Translations under genes and position numbers: made by a program
From: Ligustrum vulgare
Lineage: Eukaryota > Streptophyta > Magnoliopsida > Lamiales > Oleaceae
Assembly: GCA_963555705.1 (NCBI GenBank)
Contig: OY743168.1
Span: 94,032,925 to 94,096,924, forward strand
DNA length: 64,000 bases
Reading direction: 5' to 3'
Notes under the pieces: model-generated
The model's input: only the letters and a program-made list of their open reading frames with translations
Database searches by the model: none
Told to the model about the DNA's origin: nothing
Shown: positions 33,442 to 64,000 of the stretch, one piece after another
Layout: every line of letters begins with the position of its first letter
Position numbering within the stretch: position 1 is the first letter of the stretch

Positions 33442-34180
33442 TCATTGAGGAGGGACATCTTCTGAAGAGTTTCTACAAGGTACATCCAAAGGATCAACGA
33501 GATCATCAAGGGAACCGCCCTTATCCGTATCTTGAGGTTCAAGGTACAGGACTTCGATGGGGGATATGTCCAAAGTTGGGAAAGCTTCCTTTACGTCCCC
33601 CAAAGCCATCACGTCCCTTATATTCCCAAAGACCCTTTGCATGGCCTCATACTCTAGCGTCTCTTCAAAAGTATCTTTAAGATTCTGGATCGCCTCGGAC
33701 ACCTTGGCATTCAAAGCTCCTTCCACTCGTGTTGTAATGGTCTGCTCCAGAACCTCCGTGATCCTGGATTCCATATGCCGTTGTAGAGAGACAAGGTCCT
33801 CCTCCGCCTTTTTTCGAGTTTCCACCTCTCTCCCCAATTTCTCAGTGGATGCCGTCACCTCAGTCTCCAGCTTAGCTTTGGCTGCATTGGCTGCTGTCAG
33901 GGCCTCAGAAGCTATGGATTGAGCCCGGTTGGAGTCATCCAATTTCTTACAAAGGGGCACCACATCTGCCTCGGAAGCGTGAAGATCATGCTTTAGCTTT
34001 TCATTGTCCTCCTGAAGGCGTTTGGCTGTTACCCTATCTTCCGAGGAGGCCTTGCGAGCGATGGACAGATGCTCCTTGAGGTCATTAATTTCCTTCAGTA
34101 TCTTGTTCGCATGGCGAAGTGCCGTTTCGGCCTCCTTCTTGTCCAGTTGGGCCTCAATAACGGAAGACTCCACTTCATTA
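33442..34180 (-). CDS. antisense coiled-coil ORF of the Tat-type element, 5' end cut by the viral insertion
   Basis: The minus strand is open for about 245 codons with a high content of E, K, A and L in heptad-like spacing (for example ARKASSEDRVTAKRLQEDNE and AAKAKLETEVTASTEKLG), so a long coiled coil covers the first 150 or so residues; a tail rich in acidic residues follows. Plant Tat-lineage elements are known to carry additional, sometimes antisense, ORFs between integrase and the 3' LTR, and position and strand fit. Its function is unknown. The natural start is missing: upstream of about 34,180 the open frame continues 18 codons into viral DNA, which is a chance fusion. Unlike gag and pol this ORF has no internal stop. 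Confidence 0.6.
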
Positions 34181-34207
34181 ATTATAGCTCGTATTTTGTT
34201 CAGACAT
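34178..34207 (-). pseudogene. 203-residue gene, first codons only
   Basis: Only the start ATGTCTGAACAAAATACG and two or three further codons survive; the junction with the retroelement brings a stop after nine codons. Confidence 0.7.
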
Positions 34208-34389
34208 TTGATTTGCGAATCTCTTCGTGTCAAATCAGAAACAGATGTAATAAGAACTTTAGATTCGAATTTGAAAATCGTTCAATCAATTTATCGCGTT
34301 CAAATCGTAAATAATTGATATAAAGAACATCGTATAAACATATACTGTTCAGATCACTCGTCCAGAAGATACAGAAATTCATAGTCATG

Positions 34390-34863
34390 CTATGTGCACT
34401 TGTCTATCTTCTCTTCGCGTCTGTATTGAATGATTTCATAGCCTCTGACCAGAGCAGTCCATGTGTACGTTGATCTGTGTATGCAGTCGGAGTATTCTGA
34501 GTAGTAATCCGAGTCGATCAGGTTGGATATGAATTTTGACAAATTCGTATCTATCTTCAACCTCTCGAGGTTCTCGATTATCTGTGCAGCTGGAGTTCTG
34601 AGATAGTTTATAATTCCCAAATTTATTTCGTCCTTGTAAAACAAGAAGTCGTTGTATTCTGGACACCAGAACGGTCTGAAAACCCACGACATCATTTTCG
34701 TTTGCCTAAACAAATGATGCATATCTTCCATATGTTGAGAATAATATATTTTTTTTATCTGTTGTTTCAAATCCTCCGGTAAATCGGAGAACAAATGTCC
34801 AAACTCGTGATTTTGGTCCACTGCGAAACGAGGCGAAATTTGAGAGGAATTCATGTTTCGCAT
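34390..34863 (-). CDS. 157-residue viral protein, inverted copy
   Basis: Complete frame with the same start and stop as in the array copies; residue 21 is F where all array copies have S. Full description at the copy starting at 37287. Confidence 0.75.
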   Translation of the reverse strand: MRNMNSSQISPRFAVDQNHEFGHLFSDLPEDLKQQIKKIYYSQHMEDMHHLFRQTKMMSWVFRPFWCPEYNDFLFYKDEINLGIINYLRTPAAQIIENLERLKIDTNLSKFISNLIDSDYYSEYSDCIHRSTYTWTALVRGYEIIQYRREEKIDKCT

Positions 34864-35098
34864 GCCGAATTCGCAATGGAGTCTCTCAAACAGTACTAGT
34901 CAATTGGTGTATTGGTGTATTACTTATAGGTGTTGACTGGGAACACGTGTCATCTACTTTAATTTGAAATTCAAATTCTCCCTCCAAAACTCCCGCCCTA
35001 CAGTACGAATATTCGAAATTCAAAATTCAAAATCCGACAGATGGGACCGAGTACGTATGGAATATTCAGACCACGCAGTGGCACGGCTCCCCCAACCC

Positions 35099-35133
35099 GC
35101 GGGCAAACCTATATAATATTACGGTTTGCCCGC
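35099..35133 (-). other. viral origin stem-loop, inverted copy
   Basis: GCGGGCAAACC / GGTTTGCCCGC stem; here the loop with TAATATTAC is on the plus strand because the whole copy is inverted. Confidence 0.9.
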
Positions 35134-35431
35134 CCGCCGGGGTCACTTCCGTACAGCCACGTGTCCGAATCCTAGCCATCCGCTGTTCGGGTAAACAGGG
35201 TCGATTCAGATCGACCGCTGAGCTTGAAATTGGCCCTGCTTCTAACTTGTCGCCCACGATTAGGATGGTCCGTTCAATCGCGAGCGTTTAACTTTTTCGT
35301 ACGCTCGTATAAACGCGACGATCTTTTCTCACCGTCTTGTTGGTTGTGATGAACGTTTTACGGACTGTGATTCTTTCGATATTTATAACATTATTAATCG
35401 CCCTGCAGGTATACTTTGAAATTCATTTTCA

Positions 35432-35944
35432 ATGTCTGAACAGGGACCTGTGTTTGATAGAGATTATAAGACGAAAACAATACAAGCTTGTGCTCATGGA
35501 GATTGGAGCCACATAATTTTGAACCTGCCCAGTTTCAGTGAATACACTTGGTCGAGGTTGAGGAATCATGCGCTGAGGATTGACAAGTGTTTGATAACCT
35601 ACAGAGCTCAGTGTCCGATCAATTCCGAGGGAATTGTTAGGGTTCAGGTTCACGACACCAGGGTCGATTCGGATGATTCTAGGCAGGTTGAATATGTTTT
35701 CCCGGTGACGTGTAATGTCAACATGGTTTATTACGGTAGTAGCTGGAGTTCCATCGAGGAGAAACAGTTTCCGTGGCAATTGATGTACAGGTCGGAGAAT
35801 ACTAATATCAGAACTGGTGTTAAGTTTTGCAAGTTGAAGGGCCAACTTAAACTCTGTTCGTGCCCGAAGGCAACTGAGATTGCGTTGCGCAGTCCAGAAA
35901 TTTGTAGATCTGAAAACTTCAAGAAAGATGGAAACTTTGCATGA
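35432..35944 (+). pseudogene. movement-type protein, residues 1-157 then filler-encoded tail
   Basis: The frame agrees with the array copies to the residues LRSPEI, then runs for 13 codons into the filler DNA before a stop. It therefore keeps the N-terminal half of the conserved domain and loses the rest. Private substitutions include A86V, R116Q and L120S; residue 108 is I, as in the outermost copies. Confidence 0.85.
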
Positions 35945-36016
35945 TTCCAAAAGTTCCATACGAGAAAAGAAACATGGTCTCGATGTTGTGCAAAAGGGAA
36001 AATTGAAAAAAAAAAA
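35903..36016. other. 114-bp filler DNA between the tail-to-tail viral copies
   Basis: The segment matches neither the viral unit nor the Tat-type element within this window. It ends in a run of 12 A directly before the next viral sequence, so it could derive from a polyadenylated transcript or be patched filler made during end joining. Origin not recognised. Confidence 0.7.
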
Positions 36017-36807
36017 ACAATATCTACAATTTGATGTCCGGTCAAGGAACCCGAACAAACCAACGATTCGTCTTTCCTCGAACTAGACACCTGACTAACG
36101 CTATCCTCTGGCTTCACATCTAGATTCTGTGAAGTATTGCAATCGACAATTGGCCCAGATAACGATCGCCTAGAAAAATCATGATAACTGAGACCAGGTA
36201 CCGTCCTCACCGAATCGATGCTCATCCTACTCCTGTCGACCACGGTGAGGCATCTGTTCAGTGCTGGATTCAAATTAACATATCCAACATGCCAAACGTC
36301 AACAGCATCCTTCGAGAAATTACTCGACATAATTTGAATTTCTGGACTGCGCAACGCAATCTCAGTTGCCTTCGGGCACGAACAGAGTTTAAGTTGGCCC
36401 TTCAACTTGCAAAACTTAACACCAGTTCTGATATTAGTATTCTCCAACCTGTACATCAATCGCCACGGAAACTGTTTCTCCTCGATGGAACTCCAGCTAC
36501 TACCGTAATAAACCATGTTGACATTACACGTCACCGGGAAAACATATTCAGCCTGCCTAGAATCATCCGAATCGACCCTGGTGTCGTGAACCTGAACCCT
36601 AACAATTCCCTCGGAATTGATCGGACACTGAGCTCTGTAGGTTATCAAACACTTGTCAATCCTCAGCGCATGATTCCTCAACCTCGACCAAGTGTATTCA
36701 CTGAAACTGGGCAGGTTCAAAATTATGTGGCTCCAATCTCCATGAGCACAAGCTTGTATTGTTTTCGTCTTATAATCTCTATCAAACACAGGTCCCTGTT
36801 CAGACAT
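36017..36807 (-). pseudogene. movement-type protein, first array copy, C-terminus replaced
   Basis: Residues 1-264 agree with the complete copies, then the frame passes through the filler and the antisense of the inverted copy to 35731, giving a chimeric open frame of 358 codons. The last 22 native residues are missing. Residue 108 is I. Confidence 0.85.
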
Positions 36808-37016
36808 TGAAAATGAATTTCAAAGTATACCTGCAGGGCGATTAATAATGTTATAAATATCGAAAGAATCACAGTCCGTAAAACGTTCATCACAACCAAC
36901 AAGACGGTGAGAAAAGATCGTCGCGTTTATACGAGCGTACGAAAAAGTTAAACGCTCGCAATTGAACGGACCATCCTAATCGTGGACACGTGGCTGTACG
37001 GAAGTGACCCCGGCGG

Positions 37017-37051
37017 GCGGGCAAACCGTAATATTATATAGGTTTGCCCGC
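37017..37051 (-). other. viral origin stem-loop, unit 1
   Basis: Same 11-bp stem and 13-base loop as in the other units. The flanking origin region lacks 89 bp here (between CATCCTAATCGTGG and ACACGTGG), but the hairpin is intact. Confidence 0.92.
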
Positions 37052-37221
37052 GGGTTGGGGGAGCCGTGCCACTGCGTGGTCTGAATATTCCATACGTACT
37101 CGGTCCCATCTGTCGGATTTTGAATTTTGAATTTCGAATATTCGTACTGTAGGGCGGGAGTTTTGGAGGGAGAATTTGAATTTCAAATTAAAGTAGATGA
37201 CACGTGTTCCCAGTCAACACC

Positions 37222-37229
37222 TATAAGTA
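37222..37229 (+). promoter_or_regulatory. TATA box of the 157-residue gene
   Basis: TATAAGTA lies 58-65 bp before the ATG, with a G-box-type CACGTG about 20 bp upstream; the same sites recur in each unit (for example TATA at 39958-39965, CACGTG at 39937-39942). Confidence 0.55.
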
Positions 37230-37286
37230 ATACACCAATACACCAATTGACTAGTACTGTTTGAGAGACTCCATTGCGAATTCGGC

Positions 37287-37760
37287 ATGCGAAACATGAA
37301 TTCCTCTCAAATTTCGCCTCGTTTCGCAGTGGACCAAAATCACGAGTCTGGACATTTGTTCTCCGATTTACCGGAGGATTTGAAACAACAGATAAAAAAA
37401 ATATATTATTCTCAACATATGGAAGATATGCATCATTTGTTTAGGCAAACGAAAATGATGTCGTGGGTTTTCAGACCGTTCTGGTGTCCAGAATACAACG
37501 ACTTCTTGTTTTACAAGGACGAAATAAATTTGGGAATTATAAACTATCTCAGAACTCCAGCTGCACAGATAATCGAGAACCTCGAGAGGTTGAAGATAGA
37601 TACGAATTTGTCAAAATTCATATCCAACCTGATCGACTCGGATTACTACTCAGAATACTCCGACTGCATACACAGATCAACGTACACATGGACTGCTCTG
37701 GTCAGAGGCTATGAAATCATTCAATACAGACGCGAAGAGAAGATAGACAAGTGCACATAG
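37287..37760 (+). CDS. 157-residue viral protein of unknown function, unit 1
   Basis: I do not recognise this protein. It starts at ATG 37287, about 58 bp after a TATA box; the second in-frame ATG (codon 4) is an alternative start. The region from residue 22 is paralogous to the downstream 203-residue protein: both have a HxFxxLPxDxKxQxKxIY segment, then a stretch ending in FRPFWCPEYNDF or YPFWCPDYNSF, then a helical region. No signal peptide or membrane segment is visible and the tail is basic (YRREEKIDKCT). It is on the complementary-sense strand of the virus, where Rep would be in a geminivirus A component, but it has no Rep motifs. In a B component one of the two genes should encode a nuclear shuttle-type function; I cannot support that for this protein. 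The frame is intact in nine of ten array copies and in the inverted copy. Confidence 0.75.
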   Translation: MRNMNSSQISPRFAVDQNHESGHLFSDLPEDLKQQIKKIYYSQHMEDMHHLFRQTKMMSWVFRPFWCPEYNDFLFYKDEINLGIINYLRTPAAQIIENLERLKIDTNLSKFISNLIDSDYYSEYSDCIHRSTYTWTALVRGYEIIQYRREEKIDKCT

Positions 37761-37942
37761 CATGACTATGAATTTCTGTATCTTCTGGACGAGTGATCTG
37801 AACAGTATATGTTTATACGATGTTCTTTATATCAATTATTTACGATTTGAACGCGATAAATTGATTGAACGATTTTCAAATTCGAATCTAAAGTTCTTAT
37901 TACATCTGTTTCTGATTTGACACGAAGAGATTCGCAAATCAA

Positions 37943-38554
37943 ATGTCTGAACAAAATACGAGCTATAAATTAATCGCTAAACTTCGAATACACTCGACAC
38001 AGAATACAACTCAATATAAAATACAAATGGCATCATCTTCATCGAATAGCTGCCCGGTTCTGAACTTCGAACATATCTTCAGAATGTTGCCTCGAGACAT
38101 GAAGGATCAAGTAAAGGATATTTACTGGAGGGAATACGTGGAATCGAAGGCCAGGTTCAACAACCTATTAAAAATGACGAAGATCATCTACCCGTTCTGG
38201 TGTCCGGACTATAATTCGTTCGCATTCTTCGCAGATGATATACACTCCGGAATGCACATCAGGGTGAGAGAAATAGCAGATGAAGTGCTCAATGGCATGT
38301 ACAAATTGAATGCCGTCGCAAAACCGCAGGACATAATCAACATAATTTACACGATGGAACAAAGGTTCAGATTCTACGAAGGAATAGAATGCAGGTGCAT
38401 GGACTCCGTGGATGTCAATGAAATTGTCACGTTCATAGACTACATGAAATACCCGGAAAGGAATAACGAAGTTCACCACTATCCATTCTTGAGGGGGTTC
38501 TACGACCACTCTCTCGATCGGATCGTCCTAATCGAACAACCGCTCTTCTATTGA
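37943..38554 (+). CDS. 203-residue viral protein of unknown function, paralog of the 157-residue protein, unit 1
   Basis: The frame starts at ATG 37943; the internal Met at codon 29 (MASSSSNS) aligns with Met4 of the 157-residue protein and may be the original start, so the first 28 residues would be an added extension. That extension begins ATGTCTGAACA, the same 11 bases as the start of the movement-type gene. The core has the PFWCPDYN motif at about residues 84-91 and a helical region after it; the C-terminus is longer than in the paralog (YPFLRGFYDHSLDR). The segment REYVESKARFNN before the motif loosely recalls geminivirus V2 proteins, but this is too short to rely on. It follows the 157-residue gene after 182 bp and ends 39 bp before the end of the convergent movement-type gene. 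Confidence 0.75.
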   Translation: MSEQNTSYKLIAKLRIHSTQNTTQYKIQMASSSSNSCPVLNFEHIFRMLPRDMKDQVKDIYWREYVESKARFNNLLKMTKIIYPFWCPDYNSFAFFADDIHSGMHIRVREIADEVLNGMYKLNAVAKPQDIINIIYTMEQRFRFYEGIECRCMDSVDVNEIVTFIDYMKYPERNNEVHHYPFLRGFYDHSLDRIVLIEQPLFY

Positions 38555-38593
38555 AACAACAATGTACAACACGATATTTCATTGCATATAATG

Positions 38594-39454
38594 TCAAGAT
38601 TTGGAATTATCCGTTACAAGTTTTTGTTTAACATCGTTCTGACCCCTATCGTAAGCTGACTTAACAATATCTACAATTTGATGTCCGGTCAAGGAACCCG
38701 AACAAACCAACGATTCGTCTTTCCTCGAACTAGACACCTGACTAACGCTATCCTCTGGCTTCACATCTAGATTCTGTGAAGTATTGCAATCGACAATTGG
38801 CCCAGATAACGATCGCCTAGAAAAATCATGATAACTGAGACCAGGTACCGTCCTCACCGAATCGATGCTCATCCTACTCCTGTCGACCACGGTGAGGCAT
38901 CTGTTCAGTGCTGGATTCAAATTAACATATCCAACATGCCAAACGTCAACAGCATCCTTCGAGAAATTACTCGACATAATTTGAATTTCTGGACTGCGCA
39001 ACGCAATCTCAGTTGCCTTCGGGCACGAACAGAGTTTAAGTTGGCCCTTCAACTTGCAAAACTTAACACCAGTTCTGATATTAGTATTCTCCAACCTGTA
39101 CATCAATCGCCACGGAAACTGTTTCTCCTCGCTGGAACTCCAGCTACTACCGTAATAAACCATGTTGACATTACACGTCACCGGGAAAACATATTCAGCC
39201 TGCCTAGAATCATCCGAATCGACCCTGGTGTCGTGAACCTGAACCCTAACAATTCCCTCGGAATTGATCGGACACTGAGCTCTGTAGGTTATCAAACACT
39301 TGTCAATCCTCAGCGCATGATTCCTCAACCTCGACCAAGTGTATTCACTGAAACTGGGCAGGTTCAAAATTATGTGGCTCCAATCTCCATGAGCACAAGC
39401 TTGTATTGTTTTCGTCTTATAATCTCTATCAAACACAGGTCCCTGTTCAGACAT
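38594..39454 (-). CDS. movement protein similar to begomovirus BC1, unit 1 (first complete copy)
   Basis: The 286-residue frame starts at ATG 39452-39454 and ends at 38594, close in length to begomovirus BC1 proteins (about 290 residues). Residues about 25-180 follow the BC1 pattern: a helical start, LRIDKCLITYRAQCPIN, VQVHDTR, the strand-rich FPVTCNVNMVYYGSSW, PWRLMYRLENTN, FCKLKGQLKL and VWHVGYVN. BC1 proteins bind DNA and membranes and carry the viral genome through plasmodesmata. The C-terminal third is serine-rich and variable. Unlike BC1 it is read from the strand that carries TAATATTAC, so it is virion-sense, as I recall for the movement protein of citlodaviruses. A TATA-like TATTTATA lies 44-51 bp before the ATG. 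Homology is judged by pattern only; I place it as a movement protein with good but not full confidence. Confidence 0.82.
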   Translation of the reverse strand: MSEQGPVFDRDYKTKTIQACAHGDWSHIILNLPSFSEYTWSRLRNHALRIDKCLITYRAQCPINSEGIVRVQVHDTRVDSDDSRQAEYVFPVTCNVNMVYYGSSWSSSEEKQFPWRLMYRLENTNIRTGVKFCKLKGQLKLCSCPKATEIALRSPEIQIMSSNFSKDAVDVWHVGYVNLNPALNRCLTVVDRSRMSIDSVRTVPGLSYHDFSRRSLSGPIVDCNTSQNLDVKPEDSVSQVSSSRKDESLVCSGSLTGHQIVDIVKSAYDRGQNDVKQKLVTDNSKS

Positions 39455-40022
39455 TGAAAATGAATTTCAAAGTATACCTGCAGGGCGATTAATAATGTTA
39501 TAAATATCGAAAGAATCACAGTCCGTAAAACGTTCATCACAACCAACAAGACGGTGAGAAAAGATCGTCGCGTTTATACGAGCGTACGAAAAAGTTAAAC
39601 GCTCGCGATTGAACGGACCATCCTAATCGTGGGCGACAAGTTAGAAGCAGGGCCAATTTCAAGCTCAGCGGTCGATCTGAATCGACCCTGTTTACCCGAA
39701 CAGCGGACGGCCAGGATTCGGACACGTGGCTGTACGGAAGTGACCCCGGCGGGCGGGCAAACCGTAATATTATATAGGTTTGCCCGCGGGTTGGGGGAGC
39801 CGTGCCACTGCGTGGTCTGAATATTCCATACGTACTCGGTCCCATCTGTCGGATTTTGAATTTTGAATTTCGAATATTCGTACTGTAGGGCGGGAGTTTT
39901 GGAGGGAGAATTTGAATTTCAAATTAAAGTAGATGACACGTGTTCCCAGTCAACACCTATAAGTAATACACCAATACACCAATTGACTAGTACTGTTTGA
40001 GAGACTCCATTGCGAATTCGGC
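39455..40022. promoter_or_regulatory. viral intergenic origin and divergent promoter region (complete example)
   Basis: This 568-bp region separates the divergent movement-type and 157-residue genes. From left it holds a TATA-like site for the minus strand (39498-39505), the hairpin GGTCGAT-CTGA-ATCGACC (39670-39687), a G-box CACGTG (39723-39728), the origin hairpin (39753-39787), a segment with GTGCCACTGCGTGG that may hold Rep-binding iterons, a second CACGTG (39937-39942) and the TATA box TATAAGTA (39958-39965). True iterons could not be identified without the partner component. Confidence 0.7.
39753..39787 (-). other. viral origin stem-loop, unit 2
   Basis: The stem GCGGGCAAACC/GGTTTGCCCGC (11 bp) encloses a 13-base loop which on the minus strand reads TATATAATATTAC and so ends in the geminivirus nonanucleotide TAATATTAC, where Rep nicks to start rolling-circle replication. 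The plus strand reads TAATATTAT instead, so the minus strand is the virion strand. Confidence 0.93.
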
Positions 40023-40496
40023 ATGCGAAACATGAATTCCTCTCAAATTTCGCCTCGTTTCGCAGTGGACCAAAATCACGAGTCTGGACATTTGTTCTCC
40101 GATTTACCGGAGGATTTGAAACAACAGATAAAAAAAATATATTATTCTCAACATATGGAAGATATGCATCATTTGTTTAGGCAAACGAAAATGATGTCGT
40201 GGGTTTTCAGACCGTTCTGGTGTCCAGAATACAACGACTTCTTGTTTTACAAGGACGAAATAAATTTGGGAATTATAAACTATCTCAGAACTCCAGCTGC
40301 ACAGATAATCGAGAACCTCGAGAGGTTGAAGATAGATACGAATTTGTCAAAATTCATATCCAACCTGATCGACTCGGATTACTACTCAGAATACTCCGAC
40401 TGCATACACAGATCAACGTACACATGGACTGCTCTGGTCAGAGGCTATGAAATCATTCAATACAGACGCGAAGAGAAGATAGACAAGTGCACATAG
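40023..40496 (+). CDS. 157-residue viral protein, unit 2
   Basis: Identical in protein sequence to the unit 1 copy. Confidence 0.75.
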   Translation: MRNMNSSQISPRFAVDQNHESGHLFSDLPEDLKQQIKKIYYSQHMEDMHHLFRQTKMMSWVFRPFWCPEYNDFLFYKDEINLGIINYLRTPAAQIIENLERLKIDTNLSKFISNLIDSDYYSEYSDCIHRSTYTWTALVRGYEIIQYRREEKIDKCT

Positions 40497-40678
40497 CATG
40501 ACTATGAATTTCTGTATCTTCTGGACGAGTGATCTGAACAGTATATGTTTATACGATGTTCTTTATATCAATTATTTACGATTTGAACGCGATAAATTGA
40601 TTGAACGATTTTCAAATTCGAATCTAAAGTTCTTATTACATCTGTTTCTGATTTGACACGAAGAGATTCGCAAATCAA

Positions 40679-41290
40679 ATGTCTGAACAAAATACGAGCT
40701 ATAAATTAATCGCTAAACTTCGAATACACTCGACACAGAATACAACTCAATATAAAATACAAATGGCATCATCTTCATCGAATAGCTGCCCGGTTCTGAA
40801 CTTCGAACATATCTTCAGAATGTTGCCTCGAGACATGAAGGATCAAGTAAAGGATATTTACTGGAGGGAATACGTGGAATCGAAGGCCAGGTTCAACAAC
40901 CTATTAAAAATGACGAAGATCATCTACCCGTTCTGGTGTCCGGACTATAATTCGTTCGCATTCTTCGCAGATGATATACACTCCGGAATGCACATCAGGG
41001 TGAGAGAAATAGCAGATGAAGTGCTCAATGGCATGTACAAATTGAATGCCGTCGCAAAACCGCAGGACATAATCAACATAATTTACACGATGGAACAAAG
41101 GTTCAGATTCTACGAAGGAATAGAATGCAGGTGCATGGACTCCGTGGATGTCAATGAAATTGTCACGTTCATAGACTACATGAAATACCCGGAAAGGAAT
41201 AACGAAGTTCACCACTATCCATTCTTGAGGGGGTTCTACGACCACTCTCTCGATCGGATCGTCCTAATCGAACAACCGCTCTTCTATTGA
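40679..41290 (+). CDS. 203-residue viral protein, unit 2
   Basis: Identical in protein sequence to the unit 1 copy. Confidence 0.75.
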   Translation: MSEQNTSYKLIAKLRIHSTQNTTQYKIQMASSSSNSCPVLNFEHIFRMLPRDMKDQVKDIYWREYVESKARFNNLLKMTKIIYPFWCPDYNSFAFFADDIHSGMHIRVREIADEVLNGMYKLNAVAKPQDIINIIYTMEQRFRFYEGIECRCMDSVDVNEIVTFIDYMKYPERNNEVHHYPFLRGFYDHSLDRIVLIEQPLFY

Positions 41291-41329
41291 AACAACAATG
41301 TACAACACGATATTTCATTGCATATAATG

Positions 41330-42190: not shown

Positions 42191-42488
42191 TGAAAATGAA
42201 TTTCAAAGTATACCTGCAGGGCGATTAATAATGTTATAAATATCGAAAGAATCACAGTCCGTAAAACGTTCATCACAACCAACAAGACGGTGAGAAAAGA
42301 TCGTCGCGTTTATACGAGCGTACGAAAAAGTTAAACGCTCGCGATTGAACGGACCATCCTAATCGTGGGCGACAAGTTAGAAGCAGGGCCAATTTCAAGC
42401 TCAGCGGTCGATCTGAATCGACCCTGTTTACCCGAACAGCGGACGGCCAGGATTCGGACACGTGGCTGTACGGAAGTGACCCCGGCGG

Positions 42489-42523
42489 GCGGGCAAACCG
42501 TAATATTATATAGGTTTGCCCGC
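42489..42523 (-). other. viral origin stem-loop, unit 3
   Basis: Intact stem and nonanucleotide. Confidence 0.93.
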
Positions 42524-54970: not shown

Positions 54971-55009
54971 AACAACAATGTACAACACGATATTTCATTG
55001 CATATAATG

Positions 55010-55870: not shown

Positions 55871-56168
55871 TGAAAATGAATTTCAAAGTATACCTGCAGG
55901 GCGATTAATAATGTTATAAATATCGAAAGAATCACAGTCCGTAAAACGTTCATCACAACCAACAAGACGGTGAGAAAAGATCGTCGCGTTTATACGAGCG
56001 TACGAAAAAGTTAAACGCTCGCGATTGAACGGACCATCCTAATCGTGGGCGACAAGTTAGAAGCAGGGCCAATTTCAAGCTCAGCGGTCGATCTGAATCG
56101 ACCCTGTTTACCCGAACAGCGGACGGCCAGGATTCGGACACGTGGCTGTACGGAAGTGACCCCGGCGG

Positions 56169-56203
56169 GCGGGCAAACCGTAATATTATATAGGTTTGCC
56201 CGC
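56169..56203 (-). other. viral origin stem-loop, unit 8
   Basis: Intact stem and nonanucleotide; one base differs downstream (GGGCAGGAG for GGGCGGGAG near 56,307). Confidence 0.93.
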
Positions 56204-56438
56204 GGGTTGGGGGAGCCGTGCCACTGCGTGGTCTGAATATTCCATACGTACTCGGTCCCATCTGTCGGATTTTGAATTTTGAATTTCGAATATTCGTACT
56301 GTAGGGCAGGAGTTTTGGAGGGAGAATTTGAATTTCAAATTAAAGTAGATGACACGTGTTCCCAGTCAACACCTATAAGTAATACACCAATACACCAATT
56401 GACTAGTACTGTTTGAGAGACTCCATTGCGAATTCGGC

Positions 56439-56912
56439 ATGCGAAACATGAATTCCTCTCAAATTTCGCCTCGTTTCCCAGTGGACCAAAATCACGAGTC
56501 TGGACATTTGTTCTCCGATTTACCGGAGGATTTGAAACAACAGATAAAAAAAATATATTATTCTCAACATATGGAAGATATGCATCATTTGTTTAGGCAA
56601 ACGAAAATGATGTCGTGGGTTTTCAGACCGTTCTGGTGTCCAGAATACAACGACTTCTTGTTTTACAAGGACGAAATAAATTTGGGAATTATAAACTATC
56701 TCAGAACTCCAGCTGCACAGATAATCGAGAACCTCGAGAGGTTGAAGATAGATACGAATTTGTCAAAATTCATATCCAACCCGATCGACTCGGATTACTA
56801 CTCAGAATACTCCGACTGCATACACAGATCAACGTACACATGGACTGCTCTGGTCAGAGGCTATGAAATCATTCAATACAGACGCGAAGAGAAGATAGAC
56901 AAGTGCACATAG
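56439..56912 (+). CDS. 157-residue viral protein, unit 8
   Basis: Carries A14P and L115P, as unit 7. Confidence 0.75.
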   Translation: MRNMNSSQISPRFPVDQNHESGHLFSDLPEDLKQQIKKIYYSQHMEDMHHLFRQTKMMSWVFRPFWCPEYNDFLFYKDEINLGIINYLRTPAAQIIENLERLKIDTNLSKFISNPIDSDYYSEYSDCIHRSTYTWTALVRGYEIIQYRREEKIDKCT

Positions 56913-57094
56913 CATGACTATGAATTTCTGTATCTTCTGGACGAGTGATCTGAACAGTATATGTTTATACGATGTTCTTTATATCAATTATTTACGATTT
57001 GAACGCGATAAATTGATTGAACGATTTTCAAATTCGAATCTAAAGTTCTTATTACATCTGTTTCTGATTTGACACGAAGAGATTCGCAAATCAA

Positions 57095-57706
57095 ATGTCT
57101 GAACAAAATACGAGCTATAAATTAATCGCTAAACTTCGAATACACTCGACACAGAATACAACTCAATATAAAATACAAATGGCATCATCTTCATCGAATA
57201 GCTGCCCGGTTCTGAACTTCGAACATATCTTCAGAATGTTGCCTCGAGACATGAAGGATCAAGTAAAGGATATTTACTGGAGGGAATACGTGGAATCGAA
57301 GGCCAGGTTCAACAACCTATTAAAAATGACGAAGATCATCTACCCGTTCTGGTGTCCGGACTATAATTCGTTCGCATTCTTCGCAGATGATATACACTCC
57401 GGAATGCACATCAGGGTGAGAGAAATAGCAGATGAAGTGCTCAATGGCATGTACAAATTGAATGCCGTCGCAAAACCGCAGGACATAATCAACATAATTT
57501 ACACGATGGAACAAAGGTTCAGATTCTACGAAGGAATAGAATGCAGGTGCATGGACTCCGTGGATGTCAATGAAATTGTCACGTTCATAGACTACATGAA
57601 ATACCCGGAAAGGAATAACGAAGTTCACCACTATCCATTCTTGAGGGGGTTCTACGACCACTCTCTCGATCGGATCGTCCTAATCGAACAACCGCTCTTC
57701 TATTGA
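57095..57706 (+). CDS. 203-residue viral protein, unit 8
   Basis: Identical in protein sequence to the unit 1 copy. Confidence 0.75.
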   Translation: MSEQNTSYKLIAKLRIHSTQNTTQYKIQMASSSSNSCPVLNFEHIFRMLPRDMKDQVKDIYWREYVESKARFNNLLKMTKIIYPFWCPDYNSFAFFADDIHSGMHIRVREIADEVLNGMYKLNAVAKPQDIINIIYTMEQRFRFYEGIECRCMDSVDVNEIVTFIDYMKYPERNNEVHHYPFLRGFYDHSLDRIVLIEQPLFY

Positions 57707-57745
57707 AACAACAATGTACAACACGATATTTCATTGCATATAATG

Positions 57746-58606
57746 TCAAGATTTGGAATTATCCGTTACAAGTTTTTGTTTAACATCGTTCTGACCCCTA
57801 TCGTAAGCTGACTTAACAATATCTACAATTTGATGTCCGGTCAAGGAACCCGAACAAACCAACGATTCGTCTTTCCTCGAACTAGACACCTGACTAACGC
57901 TATCCTCTGGCTTCACATCTAGATTCTGTGAAGTATTGCAATCGACAATTGGCCCAGATAACGATCGCCTAGAAAAATCATGATAACTGAGACCAGGTAC
58001 CGTCCTCACCGAATCGATGCTCATCCTACTCCTGTCGACCACGGTGAGGCATCTGTTCAGTGCTGGATTCAAATTAACATATCCAACATGCCAAACGTCA
58101 ACAGCATCCTTCGAGAAATTACTCGACATAATTTGAATTTCTGGACTGCGCAACGCAATCTCAGTTGCCTTCGGGCACGAACAGAGTTTAAGTTGGCCCT
58201 TCAACTTGCAAAACTTAACACCAGTTCTGATATTAGTATTCTCCAACCTGTACATCAATCGCCACGGAAACTGTTTCTCCTCGCTGGAACTCCAGCTACT
58301 ACCGTAATAAACCATGTTGACATTACACGTCACCGGGAAAACATATTCAGCCTGCCTAGAATCATCCGAATCGACCCTGGTGTCGTGAACCTGAACCCTA
58401 ACAATTCCCTCGGAATTGATCGGACACTGAGCTCTGTAGGTTATCAAACACTTGTCAATCCTCAGCGCATGATTCCTCAACCTCGACCAAGTGTATTCAC
58501 TGAAACTGGGCAGGTTCAAAATTATGTGGCTCCAATCTCCATGAGCACAAGCTTGTATTGTTTTCGTCTTATAATCTCTATCAAACACAGGTCCCTGTTC
58601 AGACAT
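57746..58606 (-). CDS. BC1-like movement protein, unit 8
   Basis: Identical in protein sequence to the unit 1 copy; the last unit with S at residue 108. Confidence 0.82.
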   Translation of the reverse strand: MSEQGPVFDRDYKTKTIQACAHGDWSHIILNLPSFSEYTWSRLRNHALRIDKCLITYRAQCPINSEGIVRVQVHDTRVDSDDSRQAEYVFPVTCNVNMVYYGSSWSSSEEKQFPWRLMYRLENTNIRTGVKFCKLKGQLKLCSCPKATEIALRSPEIQIMSSNFSKDAVDVWHVGYVNLNPALNRCLTVVDRSRMSIDSVRTVPGLSYHDFSRRSLSGPIVDCNTSQNLDVKPEDSVSQVSSSRKDESLVCSGSLTGHQIVDIVKSAYDRGQNDVKQKLVTDNSKS

Positions 58607-58904
58607 TGAAAATGAATTTCAAAGTATACCTGCAGGGCGATTAATAATGTTATAAATATCGAAAGAATCACAGTCCGTAAAACGTTCATCACAACCAACA
58701 AGACGGTGAGAAAAGATCGTCGCGTTTATACGAGCGTACGAAAAAGTTAAACGCTCGCGATTGAACGGACCATCCTAATCGTGGGCGACAAGTTAGAAGC
58801 AGGGCCAATTTCAAGCTCAGCGGTCGATCTGAATCGACCCTGTTTACCCGAACAGCGGACGGCCAGGATTCGGACACGTGGCTGTACGGAAGTGACCCCG
58901 GCGG

Positions 58905-58939
58905 GCGGGCAAACCGTAATATTATATAGGTTTGCCCGC
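58905..58939 (-). other. viral origin stem-loop, unit 9
   Basis: Intact stem and nonanucleotide. Confidence 0.93.
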
Positions 58940-59174
58940 GGGTTGGGGGAGCCGTGCCACTGCGTGGTCTGAATATTCCATACGTACTCGGTCCCATCTG
59001 TCGGATTTTGAATTTTGAATTTCGAATATTCGTACTGTAGGGCGGGAGTTTTGGAGGGAGAATTTGAATTTCAAATTAAAGTAGATGACACGTGTTCCCA
59101 GTCAACACCTATAAGTAATACACCAATACACCAATTGACTAGTACTGTTTGAGAGACTCCATTGCGAATTCGGC

Positions 59175-59648
59175 ATGCGAAACATGAATTCCTCTCAAAT
59201 TTCGCCTCGTTTCGCAGTGGACCAAAATCACGAGTCTGGACATTTGTTCTCCGATTTACCGGAGGATTTGAAACAACAGATAAAAAAAATATATTATTCT
59301 CAACATATGGAAGATATGCATCATTTGTTTAGGCAAACGAAAATGATGTCGTGGGTTTTCAGACCGTTCTGGTGTCCAGAATACAACGACTTCTTGTTTT
59401 ACAAGGACGAAATAAATTTGGGAATTATAAACTATCTCAGAACTCCAGCTGCACAGATAATCGAGAACCTCGAGAGGTTGAAGATAGATACGAATTTGTC
59501 AAAATTCATATCCAACCTGATCGACTCGGATTACTACTCAGAATACTCCGACTGCGTACACAGATCAACGTACACATGGACTGCTCTGGTCAGAGGCTAT
59601 GAAATCATTCAATACAGACGCGAAGAGAAGATAGACAAGTGCACATAG
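59175..59648 (+). CDS. 157-residue viral protein, unit 9
   Basis: Carries I128V, like units 4-6 but separated from them by units 7 and 8. Confidence 0.75.
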   Translation: MRNMNSSQISPRFAVDQNHESGHLFSDLPEDLKQQIKKIYYSQHMEDMHHLFRQTKMMSWVFRPFWCPEYNDFLFYKDEINLGIINYLRTPAAQIIENLERLKIDTNLSKFISNLIDSDYYSEYSDCVHRSTYTWTALVRGYEIIQYRREEKIDKCT

Positions 59649-59830
59649 CATGACTATGAATTTCTGTATCTTCTGGACGAGTGATCTGAACAGTATATGT
59701 TTATACGATGTTCTTTATATCAATTATTTACGATTTGAACGCGATAAATTGATTGAACGATTTTCAAATTCGAATCTAAAGTTCTTATTACATCTGTTTC
59801 TGATTTGACACGAAGAGATTCGCAAATCAA

Positions 59831-60442
59831 ATGTCTGAACAAAATACGAGCTATAAATTAATCGCTAAACTTCGAATACACTCGACACAGAATACAACTC
59901 AATATAAAATACAAATGGCATCATCTTCATCGAATAGCTGCCCGGTTCTGAACTTCGAACATATCTTCAGAATGTTGCCTCGAGACATGAAGGATCAAGT
60001 AAAGGATATTTACTGGAGGGAATACGTGGAATCGAAGGCCAGGTTCAACAACCTATTAAAAATGACGAAGATCATCTACCCGTTCTGGTGTCCGGACTAT
60101 AATTCGTTCGCATTCTTCGCAGATGATATACACTCCGGAATGCACATCAGGGTGAGAGAAATAGCAGATGAAGTGCTCAATGGCATGTACAAATTGAATG
60201 CCGTCGCAAAACCGCAGGACATAATCAACATAATTTACACGATGGAACAAAGGTTCAGATTCTACGAAGGAATAGAATGCAGGTGCATGGACTCCGTGGA
60301 TGTCAATGAAATTGTCACGTTCATAGACGACATGAAATACCCGGAAAGGAATAACGAAGTTCACCACTATCCATTCTTGAGGGGGTTCTACGACCACTCT
60401 CTCGATCGGATCGTCCTAATCGAACAACCGCTCTTCTATTGA
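59831..60442 (+). CDS. 203-residue viral protein, unit 9
   Basis: Carries Y167D, shared only with unit 10. Confidence 0.75.
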   Translation: MSEQNTSYKLIAKLRIHSTQNTTQYKIQMASSSSNSCPVLNFEHIFRMLPRDMKDQVKDIYWREYVESKARFNNLLKMTKIIYPFWCPDYNSFAFFADDIHSGMHIRVREIADEVLNGMYKLNAVAKPQDIINIIYTMEQRFRFYEGIECRCMDSVDVNEIVTFIDDMKYPERNNEVHHYPFLRGFYDHSLDRIVLIEQPLFY

Positions 60443-60481
60443 AACAACAATGTACAACACGATATTTCATTGCATATAATG

Positions 60482-61342
60482 TCAAGATTTGGAATTATCC
60501 GTTACAAGTTTTTGTTTAACATCGTTCTGACCCCTATCGTAAGCTGACTTAACAATATCTACAATTTGATGTCCGGTCAAGGAACCCGAACAAACCAACG
60601 ATTCGTCTTTCCTCGAACTAGACACCTGACTAACGCTATCCTCTGGCTTCACATCTAGATTCTGTGAAGTATTGCAATCGACAATTGGCCCAGATAACGA
60701 TCGCCTAGAAAAATCATGATAACTGAGACCAGGTACCGTCCTCACCGAATCGATGCTCATCCTACTCCTGTCGACCACGGTGAGGCATCTGTTCAGTGCT
60801 GGATTCAAATTAACATATCCAACATGCCAAACTTCAACAGCATCCTTCGAGAAATTACTCGACATAATTTGAATTTCTGGACTGCGCAACGCAATCTCAG
60901 TTTCCTTCGGGCACGAACAGAGTTTAAGTTGGCCCTTCAACTTGCAAAACTTAACACCAGTTCTGATATTAGTATTCTCCAACCTGTACATCAATCGCCA
61001 CGGAAACTGTTTCTCCTCGATGGAACTCCAGCTACTACCGTAATAAACCATGTTGACATTACACGTCACCGGGAAAACATATTCAGCCTGCCTAGAATCA
61101 TCCGAATCGACCCTGGTGTCGTGAACCTGAACCCTAACAATTCCCTCGGAATTGATCGGACACTGAGCTCTGTAGGTTATCAAACACTTGTCAATCCTCA
61201 GCGCATGATTCCTCAACCTCGACCAAGTGTATTCACTGAAACTGGGCAGGTTCAAAATTATGTGGCTCCAATCTCCATGAGCACAAGCTTGTATTGTTTT
61301 CGTCTTATAATCTCTATCAAACACAGGTCCCTGTTCAGACAT
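60482..61342 (-). CDS. BC1-like movement protein, unit 9
   Basis: Carries I at residue 108, A to E in CPKATEI and D to E in AVDVWHV; the three are shared with unit 10, and I108 also with the two leftmost copies. Confidence 0.82.
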   Translation of the reverse strand: MSEQGPVFDRDYKTKTIQACAHGDWSHIILNLPSFSEYTWSRLRNHALRIDKCLITYRAQCPINSEGIVRVQVHDTRVDSDDSRQAEYVFPVTCNVNMVYYGSSWSSIEEKQFPWRLMYRLENTNIRTGVKFCKLKGQLKLCSCPKETEIALRSPEIQIMSSNFSKDAVEVWHVGYVNLNPALNRCLTVVDRSRMSIDSVRTVPGLSYHDFSRRSLSGPIVDCNTSQNLDVKPEDSVSQVSSSRKDESLVCSGSLTGHQIVDIVKSAYDRGQNDVKQKLVTDNSKS

Positions 61343-61640
61343 TGAAAATGAATTTCAAAGTATACCTGCAGGGCGATTAATAATGTTATAAATATCGAAA
61401 GAATCACAGTCCGTAAAACGTTCATCACAACCAACAAGACGGTGAGAAAAGATCGTCGCGTTTATACGAGCGTACGAAAAAGTTAAACGCTCGCGATTGA
61501 ACGGACCATCCTAATCGTGGGCGACAAGTTAGAAGCAGGGCCAATTTCAAGCTCAGCGGTCGATCTGAATCGACCCTGTTTACCCGAACAGCGGACGGCC
61601 AGGATTCGGACACGTGGCTGTACGGAAGTGACCCCGGCGG

Positions 61641-61675
61641 GCGGGCAAACCGTAATATTATATAGGTTTGCCCGC
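61641..61675 (-). other. viral origin stem-loop, unit 10
   Basis: Intact stem and nonanucleotide. Confidence 0.93.
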
Positions 61676-61910
61676 GGGTTGGGGGAGCCGTGCCACTGCG
61701 TGGTCTGAATATTCCATACGTACTCGGTCCCATCTGTCGGATTTTGAATTTTGAATTTCGAATATTCGTACTGTAGGGCGGGAGTTTTGGAGGGAGAATT
61801 TGAATTTCAAATTAAAGTAGATGACACGTGTTCCCAGTCAACACCTATAAGTAATACACCAATACACCAATTGACTAGTACTGTTTGAGAGACTCCATTG
61901 CGAATTCGGC

Positions 61911-62384
61911 ATGCGAAACATGAATTCCTCTCAAATTTCGCCTCGTTTCGCAGTGGACCAAAATCACGAGTCTGGACATTTGTTCTCCGATTTACCGGAG
62001 GATTTGAAACAACAGATAAAAAAAATATATTATTCTCAACATATGGAAGATATGCATCATTTGTTTAGGCAAACGAAAATGATGTCGTGGGTTTTCAGAC
62101 CGTTCTGGTGTCCAGAATACAACGACTTCTTGTTTTACAAGGACGAAATAAATTTGGGAATTATAAACTATCTCAGAACTCCAGCTGCACAGATAATCGA
62201 GAACCTCGAGAGGTTGAAGATAGATACGAATTTGTCAAAATTCATATCCAACCTGATCGACTCGGATTACTACTCAGAATACTCCGACTGCATACACAGA
62301 TCAACGTACACATGGACTGCTCTGGTCAGAGGCTATGAAATCATTCAATACAGACGCGAAGAGAAGATAGACAAGTGCACATAG
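61911..62384 (+). CDS. 157-residue viral protein, unit 10
   Basis: Identical in protein sequence to the unit 1 copy. Confidence 0.75.
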   Translation: MRNMNSSQISPRFAVDQNHESGHLFSDLPEDLKQQIKKIYYSQHMEDMHHLFRQTKMMSWVFRPFWCPEYNDFLFYKDEINLGIINYLRTPAAQIIENLERLKIDTNLSKFISNLIDSDYYSEYSDCIHRSTYTWTALVRGYEIIQYRREEKIDKCT

Positions 62385-62566
62385 CATGACTATGAATTTC
62401 TGTATCTTCTGGACGAGTGATCTGAACAGTATATGTTTATACGATGTTCTTTATATCAATTATTTACGATTTGAACGCGATAAATTGATTGAACGATTTT
62501 CAAATTCGAATCTAAAGTTCTTATTACATCTGTTTCTGATTTGACACGAAGAGATTCGCAAATCAA

Positions 62567-63178
62567 ATGTCTGAACAAAATACGAGCTATAAATTAATCG
62601 CTAAACTTCGAATACACTCGACACAGAATACAACTCAATATAAAATACAAATGGCATCATCTTCATCGAATAGCTGCCCGGTTCTGAACTTCGAACATAT
62701 CTTCAGAATGTTGCCTCGAGACATGAAGGATCAAGTAAAGGATATTTACTGGAGGGAATACGTGGAATCGAAGGCCAGGTTCAACAACCTATTAAAAATG
62801 ACGAAGATCATCTACCCGTTCTGGTGTCCGGACTATAATTCGTTCGCATTCTTCGCAGATGATATACACTCCGGAATGCACATCAGGGTGAGAGAAATAG
62901 CAGATGAAGTGCTCAATGGCATGTACAAATTGAATGCCGTCGCAAAACCGCAGGACATAATCAACATAATTTACACGATGGAACAAAGGTTCAGATTCTA
63001 CGAAGGAATAGAATGCAGGTGCATGGACTCCGTGGATGTCAATGAAATTGTCACGTTCATAGACGACATGAAATACCCGGAAAGGAATAACGAAGTTCAC
63101 CACTATCCATTCTTGAGGGGGTTCTACGACCACTCTCTCGATCGGATCGTCCTAATCGAACAACCGCTCTTCTATTGA
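62567..63178 (+). CDS. 203-residue viral protein, unit 10
   Basis: Carries Y167D, as unit 9. Confidence 0.75.
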   Translation: MSEQNTSYKLIAKLRIHSTQNTTQYKIQMASSSSNSCPVLNFEHIFRMLPRDMKDQVKDIYWREYVESKARFNNLLKMTKIIYPFWCPDYNSFAFFADDIHSGMHIRVREIADEVLNGMYKLNAVAKPQDIINIIYTMEQRFRFYEGIECRCMDSVDVNEIVTFIDDMKYPERNNEVHHYPFLRGFYDHSLDRIVLIEQPLFY

Positions 63179-63217
63179 AACAACAATGTACAACACGATA
63201 TTTCATTGCATATAATG

Positions 63218-64000
63218 TCAAGATTTGGAATTATCCGTTACAAGTTTTTGTTTAACATCGTTCTGACCCCTATCGTAAGCTGACTTAACAATATCTACAA
63301 TTTGATGTCCGGTCAAGGAACCCGAACAAACCAACGATTCGTCTTTCCTCGAACTAGACACCTGACTAACGCTATCCTCTGGCTTCACATCTAGATTCTG
63401 TGAAGTATTGCAATCGACAATTGGCCCAGATAACGATCGCCTAGAAAAATCATGATAACTGAGACCAGGTACCGTCCTCACCGAATCGATGCTCATCCTA
63501 CTCCTGTCGACCACGGTGAGGCATCTGTTCAGTGCTGGATTCAAATTAACATATCCAACATGCCAAACTTCAACAGCATCCTTCGAGAAATTACTCGACA
63601 TAATTTGAATTTCTGGACTGCGCAACGCAATCTCAGTTTCCTTCGGGCACGAACAGAGTTTAAGTTGGCCCTTCAACTTGCAAAACTTAACACCAGTTCT
63701 GATATTAGTATTCTCCAACCTGTACATCAATCGCCACGGAAACTGTTTCTCCTCGATGGAACTCCAGCTACTACCGTAATAAACCATGTTGACATTACAC
63801 GTCACCGGGAAAACATATTCAGCCTGCCTAGAATCATCCGAATCGACCCTGGTGTCGTGAACCTGAACCCTAACAATTCCCTCGGAATTGATCGGACACT
63901 GAGCTCTGTAGGTTATCAAACACTTGTCAATCCTCAGCGCATGATTCCTCAACCTCGACCAAGTGTATTCACTGAAACTGGGCAGGTTCAAAATTATGTG
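63218..64000 (-). CDS. BC1-like movement protein, unit 10, cut by the window edge
   Basis: The stop is at 63218 and the frame is open to the edge; by the unit period its start would lie at 64078, 78 bp outside. Carries the same three substitutions as unit 9. Confidence 0.82.
   Translation of the reverse strand, partial: HIILNLPSFSEYTWSRLRNHALRIDKCLITYRAQCPINSEGIVRVQVHDTRVDSDDSRQAEYVFPVTCNVNMVYYGSSWSSIEEKQFPWRLMYRLENTNIRTGVKFCKLKGQLKLCSCPKETEIALRSPEIQIMSSNFSKDAVEVWHVGYVNLNPALNRCLTVVDRSRMSIDSVRTVPGLSYHDFSRRSLSGPIVDCNTSQNLDVKPEDSVSQVSSSRKDESLVCSGSLTGHQIVDIVKSAYDRGQNDVKQKLVTDNSKS

What the first reader, a model, noticed from the sequence alone, without database searches (positions are those of the whole stretch)
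34180..64000. Large tandem array of a geminivirus-like, Rep-less 2,736-bp DNA integrated in a plant genome
Ten head-to-tail units with a constant 2,736-bp period, eleven origin hairpins with TAATATTAC, and intact genes in almost every copy. Known endogenous geminivirus sequences that I am aware of (for example in Nicotiana and Dioscorea) are Rep-derived and mostly degraded; an array of a movement-protein component with open genes would be new in kind. The seen facts are period, hairpin and frames; virus identity rests on pattern similarity to BC1.
Basis: partly seen in the sequence, partly recalled or inferred. Interest (0 to 1): 0.96.

Follow-up and report, generated by a model that had tools for sequence, protein, structure and literature searches.

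The report
Bipartite geminivirus arrays in privet chromosomes
A plant chromosome, very likely of wild privet, holds about fifteen nearly identical, mostly head-to-tail copies of the movement-gene half of a two-part plant virus related to one found in olive trees, and the same genome also holds the replication-gene half and well over a hundred half-size copies; this matters because it makes testable the open question whether the olive virus is built into olive chromosomes.

Summary
Window 34,182-64,000 is the left part of a 42.7-kb locus on chromosome 1 of a 1.385-Gb genome whose chromosome lengths match wild privet, Ligustrum vulgare (Oleaceae). The 2,736-bp unit (copies 99.8% alike) is a geminivirus DNA-B. 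Its 286-residue BL1 movement protein (Pfam E 2.5e-54) lies in virion sense, the unusual layout of Olea europaea geminivirus (OEGV). The 203-residue protein found one relative, OEGV BC1 (E 4.7e-42). The genome also holds DNA-A: 26 Rep and 24 coat-protein matches. One Rep is closest to OEGV (64%), and a common region is up to 99% identical between A and B. It holds 466 origin hairpins; 74 of the 100 listed lie in 1.33-kb half-size arrays spanning over 320 kb on chromosome 10 and 177 kb on chromosome 9. Residence is chromosomal: host junctions, a 687-bp host duplication around the array, a segmental duplication, transposons inside viral copies. Seven of 55 hand-listed breakpoints lie within 1 nt of the Rep nick and all keep the virion 5' side, suggesting Rep-linked integration. 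Tandem endogenous geminiviruses are known; a complete bipartite set with half-size arrays is a new variant.

The parts
23997..24677 (+). Left terminal-repeat-like copy of the retrotransposon (likely Gypsy-type) that apparently holds the array (partner right of the array at L020:6669-7349)
   Evidence: 681-bp direct repeat at 94.0% on the two sides of the array; gag and RNase H domains in between
33495..34181 (+). Left copy of a 687-bp host duplication that abuts both ends of the viral array (right copy L020:2907-3593)
   Evidence: 99.71% identity, 2 differences, distance 0 from both junctions
34182..36983 (.). Rearranged viral edge: inverted and out-of-register DNA-B pieces
   Evidence: inverted repeats I1 and I2 and direct repeat D1; HSP chain
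36984..64000 (.). Regular DNA-B array, period 2,736 bp, 9.87 units in the window; continues to C1:94109830
   Evidence: lag identity; Pfam and DNA searches of the genome; L019 and L020
37015..37055 (-). Origin hairpin with TAATATTAC (nick between 37030 and 37029 on the - strand); one of ten at 2,736-bp spacing in the array
   Evidence: folding -21.6 kcal/mol with RNA parameters
35114..35122 (+). TAATATTAC of the inverted edge copy
38594..39454 (-). Movement protein (BL1), 286 aa, virion sense; repeats every 2,736 bp
   Evidence: PF00845 E 2.5e-54
37943..38554 (+). 203-aa complementary-sense protein, relative of OEGV BC1; repeats every 2,736 bp
   Evidence: profile hit E 4.7e-42 to the OEGV hypothetical protein, 51% identity over 80%
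37287..37760 (+). 157-aa complementary-sense protein, paralogue of the 203-aa protein; its first residues lie in the common region and match the Rep N-terminus
   Evidence: BLASTP E 4e-17 between the two; N-terminus MNSSQ..RFAV as in Rep, by eye
36909..37331 (-). Common region shared with DNA-A (pieces of 423 nt in B, 422 in A)
   Evidence: up to 99.2% identity over 378 nt between a DNA-A copy and this DNA-B
35731..36807 (-). 358-aa frame: movement-protein start (protein residues 24-209) running into rearranged DNA
   Evidence: PF00845 E 4e-54, profile 15-198
38828..39457 (+). 209-aa frame antisense to the movement gene; no family match, probably not a gene

Best explanation
The stretch is the left part of a chromosomal array of the DNA-B component of a bipartite geminivirus of the Olea europaea geminivirus lineage, apparently inside a retrotransposon on chromosome 1 of what is very likely wild privet, and it likely arose when linear rolling-circle products, joined to the chromosome by their Rep-cleaved 5' end, were inserted and later multiplied by unequal exchange. 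Shown: unit, genes, host junctions, a DNA-A with matching common region elsewhere in the genome, half-size derivatives, and breakpoints piled up at the nick with one polarity. Inferred, step by step: (1) a replicating virus with Rep (DNA-A) nicked TAATATT/AC and stayed on the 5' end, as known for geminivirus Rep (recalled); (2) that end, or more-than-unit-length DNA carrying it, was captured at chromosome breaks on several occasions, with A and B sometimes together; (3) at C1 the capture duplicated 687 bp of the target; (4) copies then came to share variants in blocks, as expected from unequal crossing-over or gene conversion; (5) separately, a half-size deletion molecule carrying the origin was captured on chromosomes 9 and 10 and grew into satellite-like arrays.
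For: Identity: PF00845 E 2.5e-54; OEGV BC1 is the only hit of the 203-aa family at E <= 0.01 among 3,032 word-sharing candidates; virion-sense movement gene at 312-1172 from the nick versus 309-1199 in OEGV. DNA-A: Rep, TrAP, REn and coat-protein domains side by side at C7, 26 Rep and 24 coat matches genome-wide, Rep 64% to OEGV, clade support 100/100, common region up to 99.2%. Chromosomal: host flanks and a 687-bp duplication, segmental duplication on C5 at 99.7% over 9.9 kb through the virus-host junctions, two transposon insertions into viral copies with 5- and 6-bp duplications. Mechanism: 7 of 55 breakpoints within 1 nt of the nick, 0.06 expected; 7 of 7 keep the virion 5' side. Virus-like past: movement-gene dN/dS 0.13-0.23 when C5 and C7 copies are compared with C1, C13 and C15 copies, Rep 0.20-0.40 among 6 copies, against 0.95 for the two neighbouring copies on C5 (0.91 when the first is replaced by its segmental duplicate).
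Against: The breakpoint list (55) was made by hand from one BLAST chain, and the seven nick edges are six joints. The C1 array's own outer ends (938 and 396 in unit coordinates) are not at the nick. Only 1 of 10 insertions tested shows a target duplication. Shared variants fit post-insertion duplication but could also be inherited from a mixed template. The true copy number is not proven: the published HiFi totals imply a mean read near 15 kb, shorter than the 42.7-kb locus. Two sequence searches with the movement protein itself found nothing, and OEGV's own movement protein was not fetched or compared. Not all cross-locus dN/dS values are low: movement genes C5 versus C7 0.61-0.98 and C19 comparisons 0.29-0.66; 203-aa gene 0.20-0.63.
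Confidence: 0.82

Rival explanations
1. The array is an assembly product: reads of an episomal virus in the sequenced plant were joined into a chromosome.
For: Copies are 99.8% alike and the locus is longer than the mean HiFi read implied by the published totals.
Against: Viral copies are found on many chromosomes with distinct host flanks. C5 carries a 9.9-kb segmental duplication through the junctions. Transposons sit inside viral copies with target duplications. Older copies are only 75-90% identical to the C1 unit, piece by piece, and some carry stops. The 687-bp host duplication has 2 differences of its own.
Confidence: 0.04
2. One or two DNA-B copies were inserted and the array grew purely inside the chromosome by unequal crossing-over, like ordinary satellite DNA; replication concatemers played no part.
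For: Of the 16 variable columns, 8 carry alleles shared by two or more copies, usually neighbours. The half-size arrays look like satellite DNA.
Against: The C15 insertion is 1.1 units long and starts at the nick, so more-than-unit-length molecules do integrate. DNA-A and DNA-B are also found fused through the common region.
Confidence: 0.3
3. The copies spread inside the genome without any outside virus: chromosomal Rep genes nick chromosomal origins and the products re-insert, a transposon-like pair (DNA-A autonomous, DNA-B and half-size DNA non-autonomous).
For: Rep frames without internal stops in 4 of 6 copies compared, 466 origin hairpins, nick-site ends, nearly identical movement genes on C1, C13 and C15.
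Against: Such an element would not need a movement gene, yet movement-gene dN/dS is 0.13-0.23 between the C1/C13/C15 and C5/C7 copies. No expression data were examined.
Confidence: 0.12

Closest known systems
Olea europaea geminivirus DNA-B (PMC8000510, first four of seven parts of the text; PMC8540022, abstract and section 3.3; PMC8622421, passages)
   Same: Movement protein in virion sense at nearly the same position; BC1 relative of 51% identity; 2.7-kb unit; long common region (about 403 nt there, about 423 nt here); DNA-A with Rep 64% identical
   Different: Unit 2,736 instead of 2,763 bp; movement protein 286 instead of 296 aa; a second, paralogous 157-aa frame that the OEGV texts seen do not report. 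Integrated in many loci here; for OEGV, total-DNA Southern lanes showed no band at all and only rolling-circle products did, which its authors read as episomal, while others took its near-invariance as a sign of integration
Fraxinus symptomless virus (PMC8705360, abstract and passages)
   Same: Rep in the same Oleaceae clade (60% identity)
   Different: No DNA-B was found there; Southern blot showed no band, so integration is neither shown nor excluded
Endogenous geminiviral sequences of yam (EGV1, PMC5014472, passages) and tobacco (GRD, mentioned there)
   Same: Tandem repeats (2,642 bp in yam) with a TAATATTAC hairpin in a plant genome
   Different: Rep/REn type, no DNA-B in the passages seen; here both components and half-size derivatives
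Geminivirus sub-genomic (defective) DNAs (review PMC3187698, its section 5 and passages)
   Same: About half unit size, origin kept, deletions elsewhere
   Different: Known as episomal molecules or transgenes; here natural chromosomal arrays of 1.33-kb units on C9 and C10
Endogenous geminiviruses of Camellia and others (PMC7758297, section 3.3 and passages)
   Same: Rep loci with other geminiviral domains, clusters; olive genome listed among those with Rep loci
   Different: Survey was Rep-led; 'DNA-B' is not found in its main text

Membership tests
Geminivirus DNA-B component | Unit of about 2.5-2.8 kb with hairpin and TAATATTAC | tested here: met
   2,736-bp period and 11 TAATATTAC; one hairpin folded
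Geminivirus DNA-B component | BL1/BC1-type movement protein | tested here: met
   PF00845 185 bits, cut-off 21
Geminivirus DNA-B component | Common region shared with a cognate DNA-A | tested here: met
   378 nt at up to 99.2% with a DNA-A copy on C15
Geminivirus DNA-B component | Nuclear shuttle protein (BV1, coat/NSP family) as in begomoviruses | tested here: not met
   No PF00844 match in the unit's five ATG frames of 100 aa or more; OEGV DNA-B lacks it too
OEGV lineage | Movement gene in virion sense | tested here: met
   286-aa frame and TAATATTAC on the same strand
OEGV lineage | Relative of OEGV BC1 | tested here: met
   E 4.7e-42, only hit
OEGV lineage | Rep groups with OEGV apart from begomoviruses | tested here: met
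   100/100 support, 14 rows chosen from the hits
Olea europaea geminivirus (the species) | Near-identical sequence | tested here: not met
   12 published OEGV primers have at least 3 mismatches in the window, 11 of them 6 or more; Rep 64%
Endogenous viral element | Virus-host junctions and shared fate with host DNA | tested here: met
Endogenous viral element | Reads that span the junction and the array | not testable with these tools
   no reads held
Half-size defective geminivirus DNA | About half size, origin kept, coding parts deleted | tested here: met
   C10 unit 1,327-1,335 bp keeps origin and 157-aa frame, lacks the movement gene
Half-size defective geminivirus DNA | Replicates with a helper and is packaged | not testable with these tools
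   no episomal data

The most novel reading that the evidence does not exclude
Privet carries an inherited form of defective-interfering immunity: hundreds of chromosomal half-size DNA-B molecules with intact origins, built from one deletion molecule and spread over chromosomes 9 and 10, would be copied by the Rep of an incoming (or endogenous) OEGV-like virus and compete with it or feed its silencing, while the full A and B copies around them record repeated Rep-guided integration that enters by the nicked 5' end, as T-DNA does by its right border.
Probability: 0.13. Interest if true: 0.95.

Novelty: new variant of a known kind. Interest (0 to 1): 0.82.

Why it matters
It has been argued both that OEGV is episomal in olive (PMC8000510) and that its near-invariance means it is integrated (PMC8622421). 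A sister virus with both components in a related genome gives the probes, the junction logic and the unit layout to settle that from olive assemblies, and warns that PCR or sequencing detection of such viruses in Oleaceae may report chromosomal copies. The junctions at the Rep nick with one polarity are a countable test of how these viruses enter chromosomes. The half-size arrays show a virus-derived molecule turning into satellite-like DNA.

Tried and rejected
Caulimovirus coat similarity of the 203-aa protein (E 0.013, below cut-off) was rejected once OEGV BC1 turned up. Search of IMG/VR by movement-protein peptides and by an OEGV primer found nothing. Protein search with the movement protein alone: 220 candidates, none at E <= 1e-5; that search needs shared 5-residue words, so this is weak evidence. 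Plasmid and PDB comparisons of the movement protein: no match. AlphaFold2 of the 203-aa protein on 5 sequences gave pLDDT 44.5 and was not used further. Repeated 5-mers in the common regions did not single out clear iterons like those reported for OEGV. Near-junction flank duplications at 9 other insertions: only chance 9-10-base matches. The idea that the insert between u 148 and 153 on C7 was another DNA-A was rejected: it looks like a transposon. Rows dropped before counts: the C22 movement gene (860 bp, out of frame) from dN/dS, the C19 157-aa gene (473 bp) from dN/dS, and DNA-A loci L039-L046 from the breakpoint list. Papers: searches. None of their listings showed an endogenous geminivirus of Ligustrum, a DNA-B array, or geminivirus-derived half-size satellite arrays; subscription papers are not held. 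The one paper with Ligustrum and geminivirus (PMC8503643, passages) is on a hordeivirus and names geminivirus only in a reference. PMC6293997 was seen in a listing only.
Full report
Observation. The period of 2,736 bp, the eleven TAATATTAC motifs and the open frames are all there. Expected TAATATTAC in the whole window by shuffling is 1.13. The regular array starts at 36,984; the 2.8 kb before it are inverted and out-of-register viral pieces. The genome search places the window at C1:94,032,925-94,096,924 of a genome of 1,384,917,791 bp in 51 contigs. With the sequence right of the window, the viral locus runs from C1:94,067,106 to C1:94,109,830 (42.7 kb), has 14 whole movement genes (11 in one orientation, 3 in the other) and turns round once.

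What the unit is. The 286-aa protein is a geminivirus BL1 movement protein (PF00845 E 2.5e-54). It lies on the same strand as the nonanucleotide, that is in virion sense, which PMC8000510 reports as peculiar for OEGV DNA-B. Measured from the nick, it runs 312-1172 (OEGV 309-1199) and the 203-aa frame 1823 to 1212 on the other strand (OEGV BC1 1757 to 1224). A profile of the 203/157-aa family found one protein with E <= 0.01 among 3,032 word-sharing candidates from 5.8 billion: OEGV BC1, 51% identity, E 4.7e-42. The 157-aa frame is a paralogue of the 203-aa one (E 4e-17). It starts inside the common region, and its first residues resemble those of Rep. It is not OEGV itself: published OEGV primers do not fit.

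The other component. On C7 (L030), next to a DNA-B copy, lie Rep (Gemini_AL1 1.5e-42, AL1_M 2.8e-25), TrAP (2.4e-17), REn (3.1e-16) and coat protein in two frames (5.9e-14, 6.5e-5). The Rep matches PDB 1l2m at 2.3e-38; the best of its 852 matches is the OEGV replicase (64%), then Fraxinus symptomless virus (60%), then a set of mostly begomoviruses at 52-57% (120 listed). In a 14-row tree the three Oleaceae Reps form a clade at 100/100. Genome-wide there are 26 Rep matches, 13 of them over all or all but one of the 113 positions, one of these 13 weak at 5e-5 with five stops, and 24 coat-protein matches. DNA-A is also tandem at C10:20.78 Mb, period 2,751. A and B share a common region: 378 nt at 99.2% between a C15 DNA-A and the C1 DNA-B, about 423 nt in all. 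So the genome holds both components; 'Rep-less' is true of this array only. The 14 control genomes of the family searches had no match.

Half-size arrays. The origin hairpin (32 bases, up to 3 mismatches) occurs 466 times in the genome, 0 in the reversed control. Of the 100 places listed, 74 lie in arrays on C9 (41.284-41.461 Mb, 48 places) and C10 (from 30.850 Mb, 26 places) at spacings that are mostly multiples of about 1.33 kb. The C10 array reaches at least 31.175 Mb; it was read in three 10-kb stretches and otherwise followed by hits, so continuity is not shown base by base. C9 has further copies at 41.69 Mb. The units read keep the origin, the 157-aa frame region and the first 102 nt of the 203-aa frame, and have lost the movement gene. 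C9 and C10 units share the same deletion junction with a 14-nt filler, so they likely descend from one molecule. An array at C10:32.96 Mb and a copy on C19 have other deletions. Half unit size with the origin kept is what geminivirus sub-genomic DNAs show, and about half size is said to be needed for packaging (PMC3187698, its section 5). The same section says that plants made transgenic for sub-genomic DNA are usually more resistant to closely related geminiviruses, though they can also be more sensitive; this is the ground for the novel case. Searches by protein and DNA score only the best candidates (150 of 956; 40 of 498), so exact numbers are open.

Chromosomal residence. The array is apparently inserted in a retrotransposon, likely Gypsy-type (gag and RNase H domains; 681-bp repeats at 94% on either side). 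A 687-bp stretch of host DNA abuts the array on both sides as a direct duplication with 2 differences. [quoted passage not shown] with two differences the range is very wide, and faster plant rates (about 7e-9, recalled) give about 0.2 million. Two C5 loci are copies of one another over 9.9 kb at 99.7%, viral DNA and flanks together. A transposon of apparently one family has landed in viral copies on C9 and C7, with duplications of 5 and 6 bp. These speak against an assembly artefact as the general explanation.

Mode of entry. In unit coordinates the nick lies at 2729|2730. From the BLAST chain I listed by hand 55 ends of viral stretches, deletion joints included (left out: stretch edges, transposon gaps, the segmental copy, repeated copies of one deletion, and ends that are only the limit of the common region). 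Seven ends, in six joints on C7, C10 (two), C15, C19 and C22, lie within 1 nt of the nick; 0.06 would be expected (P about 4e-13, which takes the 55 as independent). All seven keep the virion 5' side, to which Rep stays bound after cleavage (recalled knowledge of geminivirus Rep); none of the 55 ends at the nick with the other side kept. On C19 two such ends meet head to head (CCGT|ACGG). Three other ends, on C2, C12 and C19, stop 8-9 nt short of the nick at the loop base (CCTA), keeping the 3' side (the C12 one is outside the 55). Against this, the outer ends of the C1 locus are not at the nick.

History. Movement genes on C1, C13 and C15 are nearly identical (99.9%), while those on C5 and C7 differ from them with dN/dS 0.13-0.23, as in a virus under selection; the two neighbouring C5 copies differ at 0.95 (0.91 with the segmental duplicate), as expected after integration. 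C5 against C7 gave 0.61-0.98, so part of that divergence is also post-integration, and comparisons involving C19 gave 0.29-0.66. The 203-aa gene gave 0.20-0.63. Rep gave 0.20-0.40 over 6 copies, 4 of them without an internal stop. The 157-aa frame gave 0.25-0.86 between chromosomes, 1.15-1.37 between C9 places, and is broken in all four C9 copies examined. Copies only 75-90% alike, piece by piece, on C2 (46.37 Mb), C8 and C13 (50.75 Mb) are older. So entries likely happened at several times, the last ones recently.

Known or new. Tandem endogenous geminiviruses are published for tobacco and yam, and Rep loci with other geminiviral domains for many plants, with Rep loci in olive. I found no report, in the searches named in Tried and rejected, of an endogenous OEGV-like virus shown in a genome, of DNA-B arrays with open genes, of both components of one virus in one genome with a matching common region, or of half-size arrays of this size. 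Hence: new variant of a known kind.

Noticed in passing
L020:2578-4038 (-): A 486-aa open frame runs from host (retrotransposon-region) sequence across the right host junction into the 157-aa viral frame, a natural host-virus fusion frame.
   Followed up: no
L025:2836-4730 and L030:6358-8770: Two insertions of apparently one transposon family (both begin tgtagcgacc) inside viral copies, with 5- and 6-bp target duplications.
   Followed up: partly
L033:7476, L036:3517, L044:1224: Three viral 3' ends on three chromosomes stop at the same place, CCTA at the base of the hairpin loop, 8-9 nt short of the nick.
   Followed up: partly
window 36984-64000: Of the 16 variable columns in the array, 8 carry variants shared by two or more copies, mostly neighbours, a footprint of block duplication or gene conversion.
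   Followed up: partly
PMC8622421, discussion passage: The proposed nuclear localisation peptide is assigned to OEGV BC1, but its nucleotide position (708-809) lies within the movement gene as given in PMC8000510, and by eye it resembles the movement protein here; possibly an annotation slip.
   Followed up: no
L029:8903-9622: A 6-phosphogluconate dehydrogenase C-terminal coding stretch (E 4.7e-91) lies about 1.3 kb from viral copies on C2.
   Followed up: no
window 5759-6997 (-): Reverse-transcriptase frame of 412 aa (PF00078 3.5e-11), a separate retroelement remnant.
   Followed up: no
C10:20.777-20.782 Mb and C10:8.349-8.352 Mb: Tandem DNA-A copies (period about 2,750 bp), partly inverted at the first place.
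   Followed up: partly
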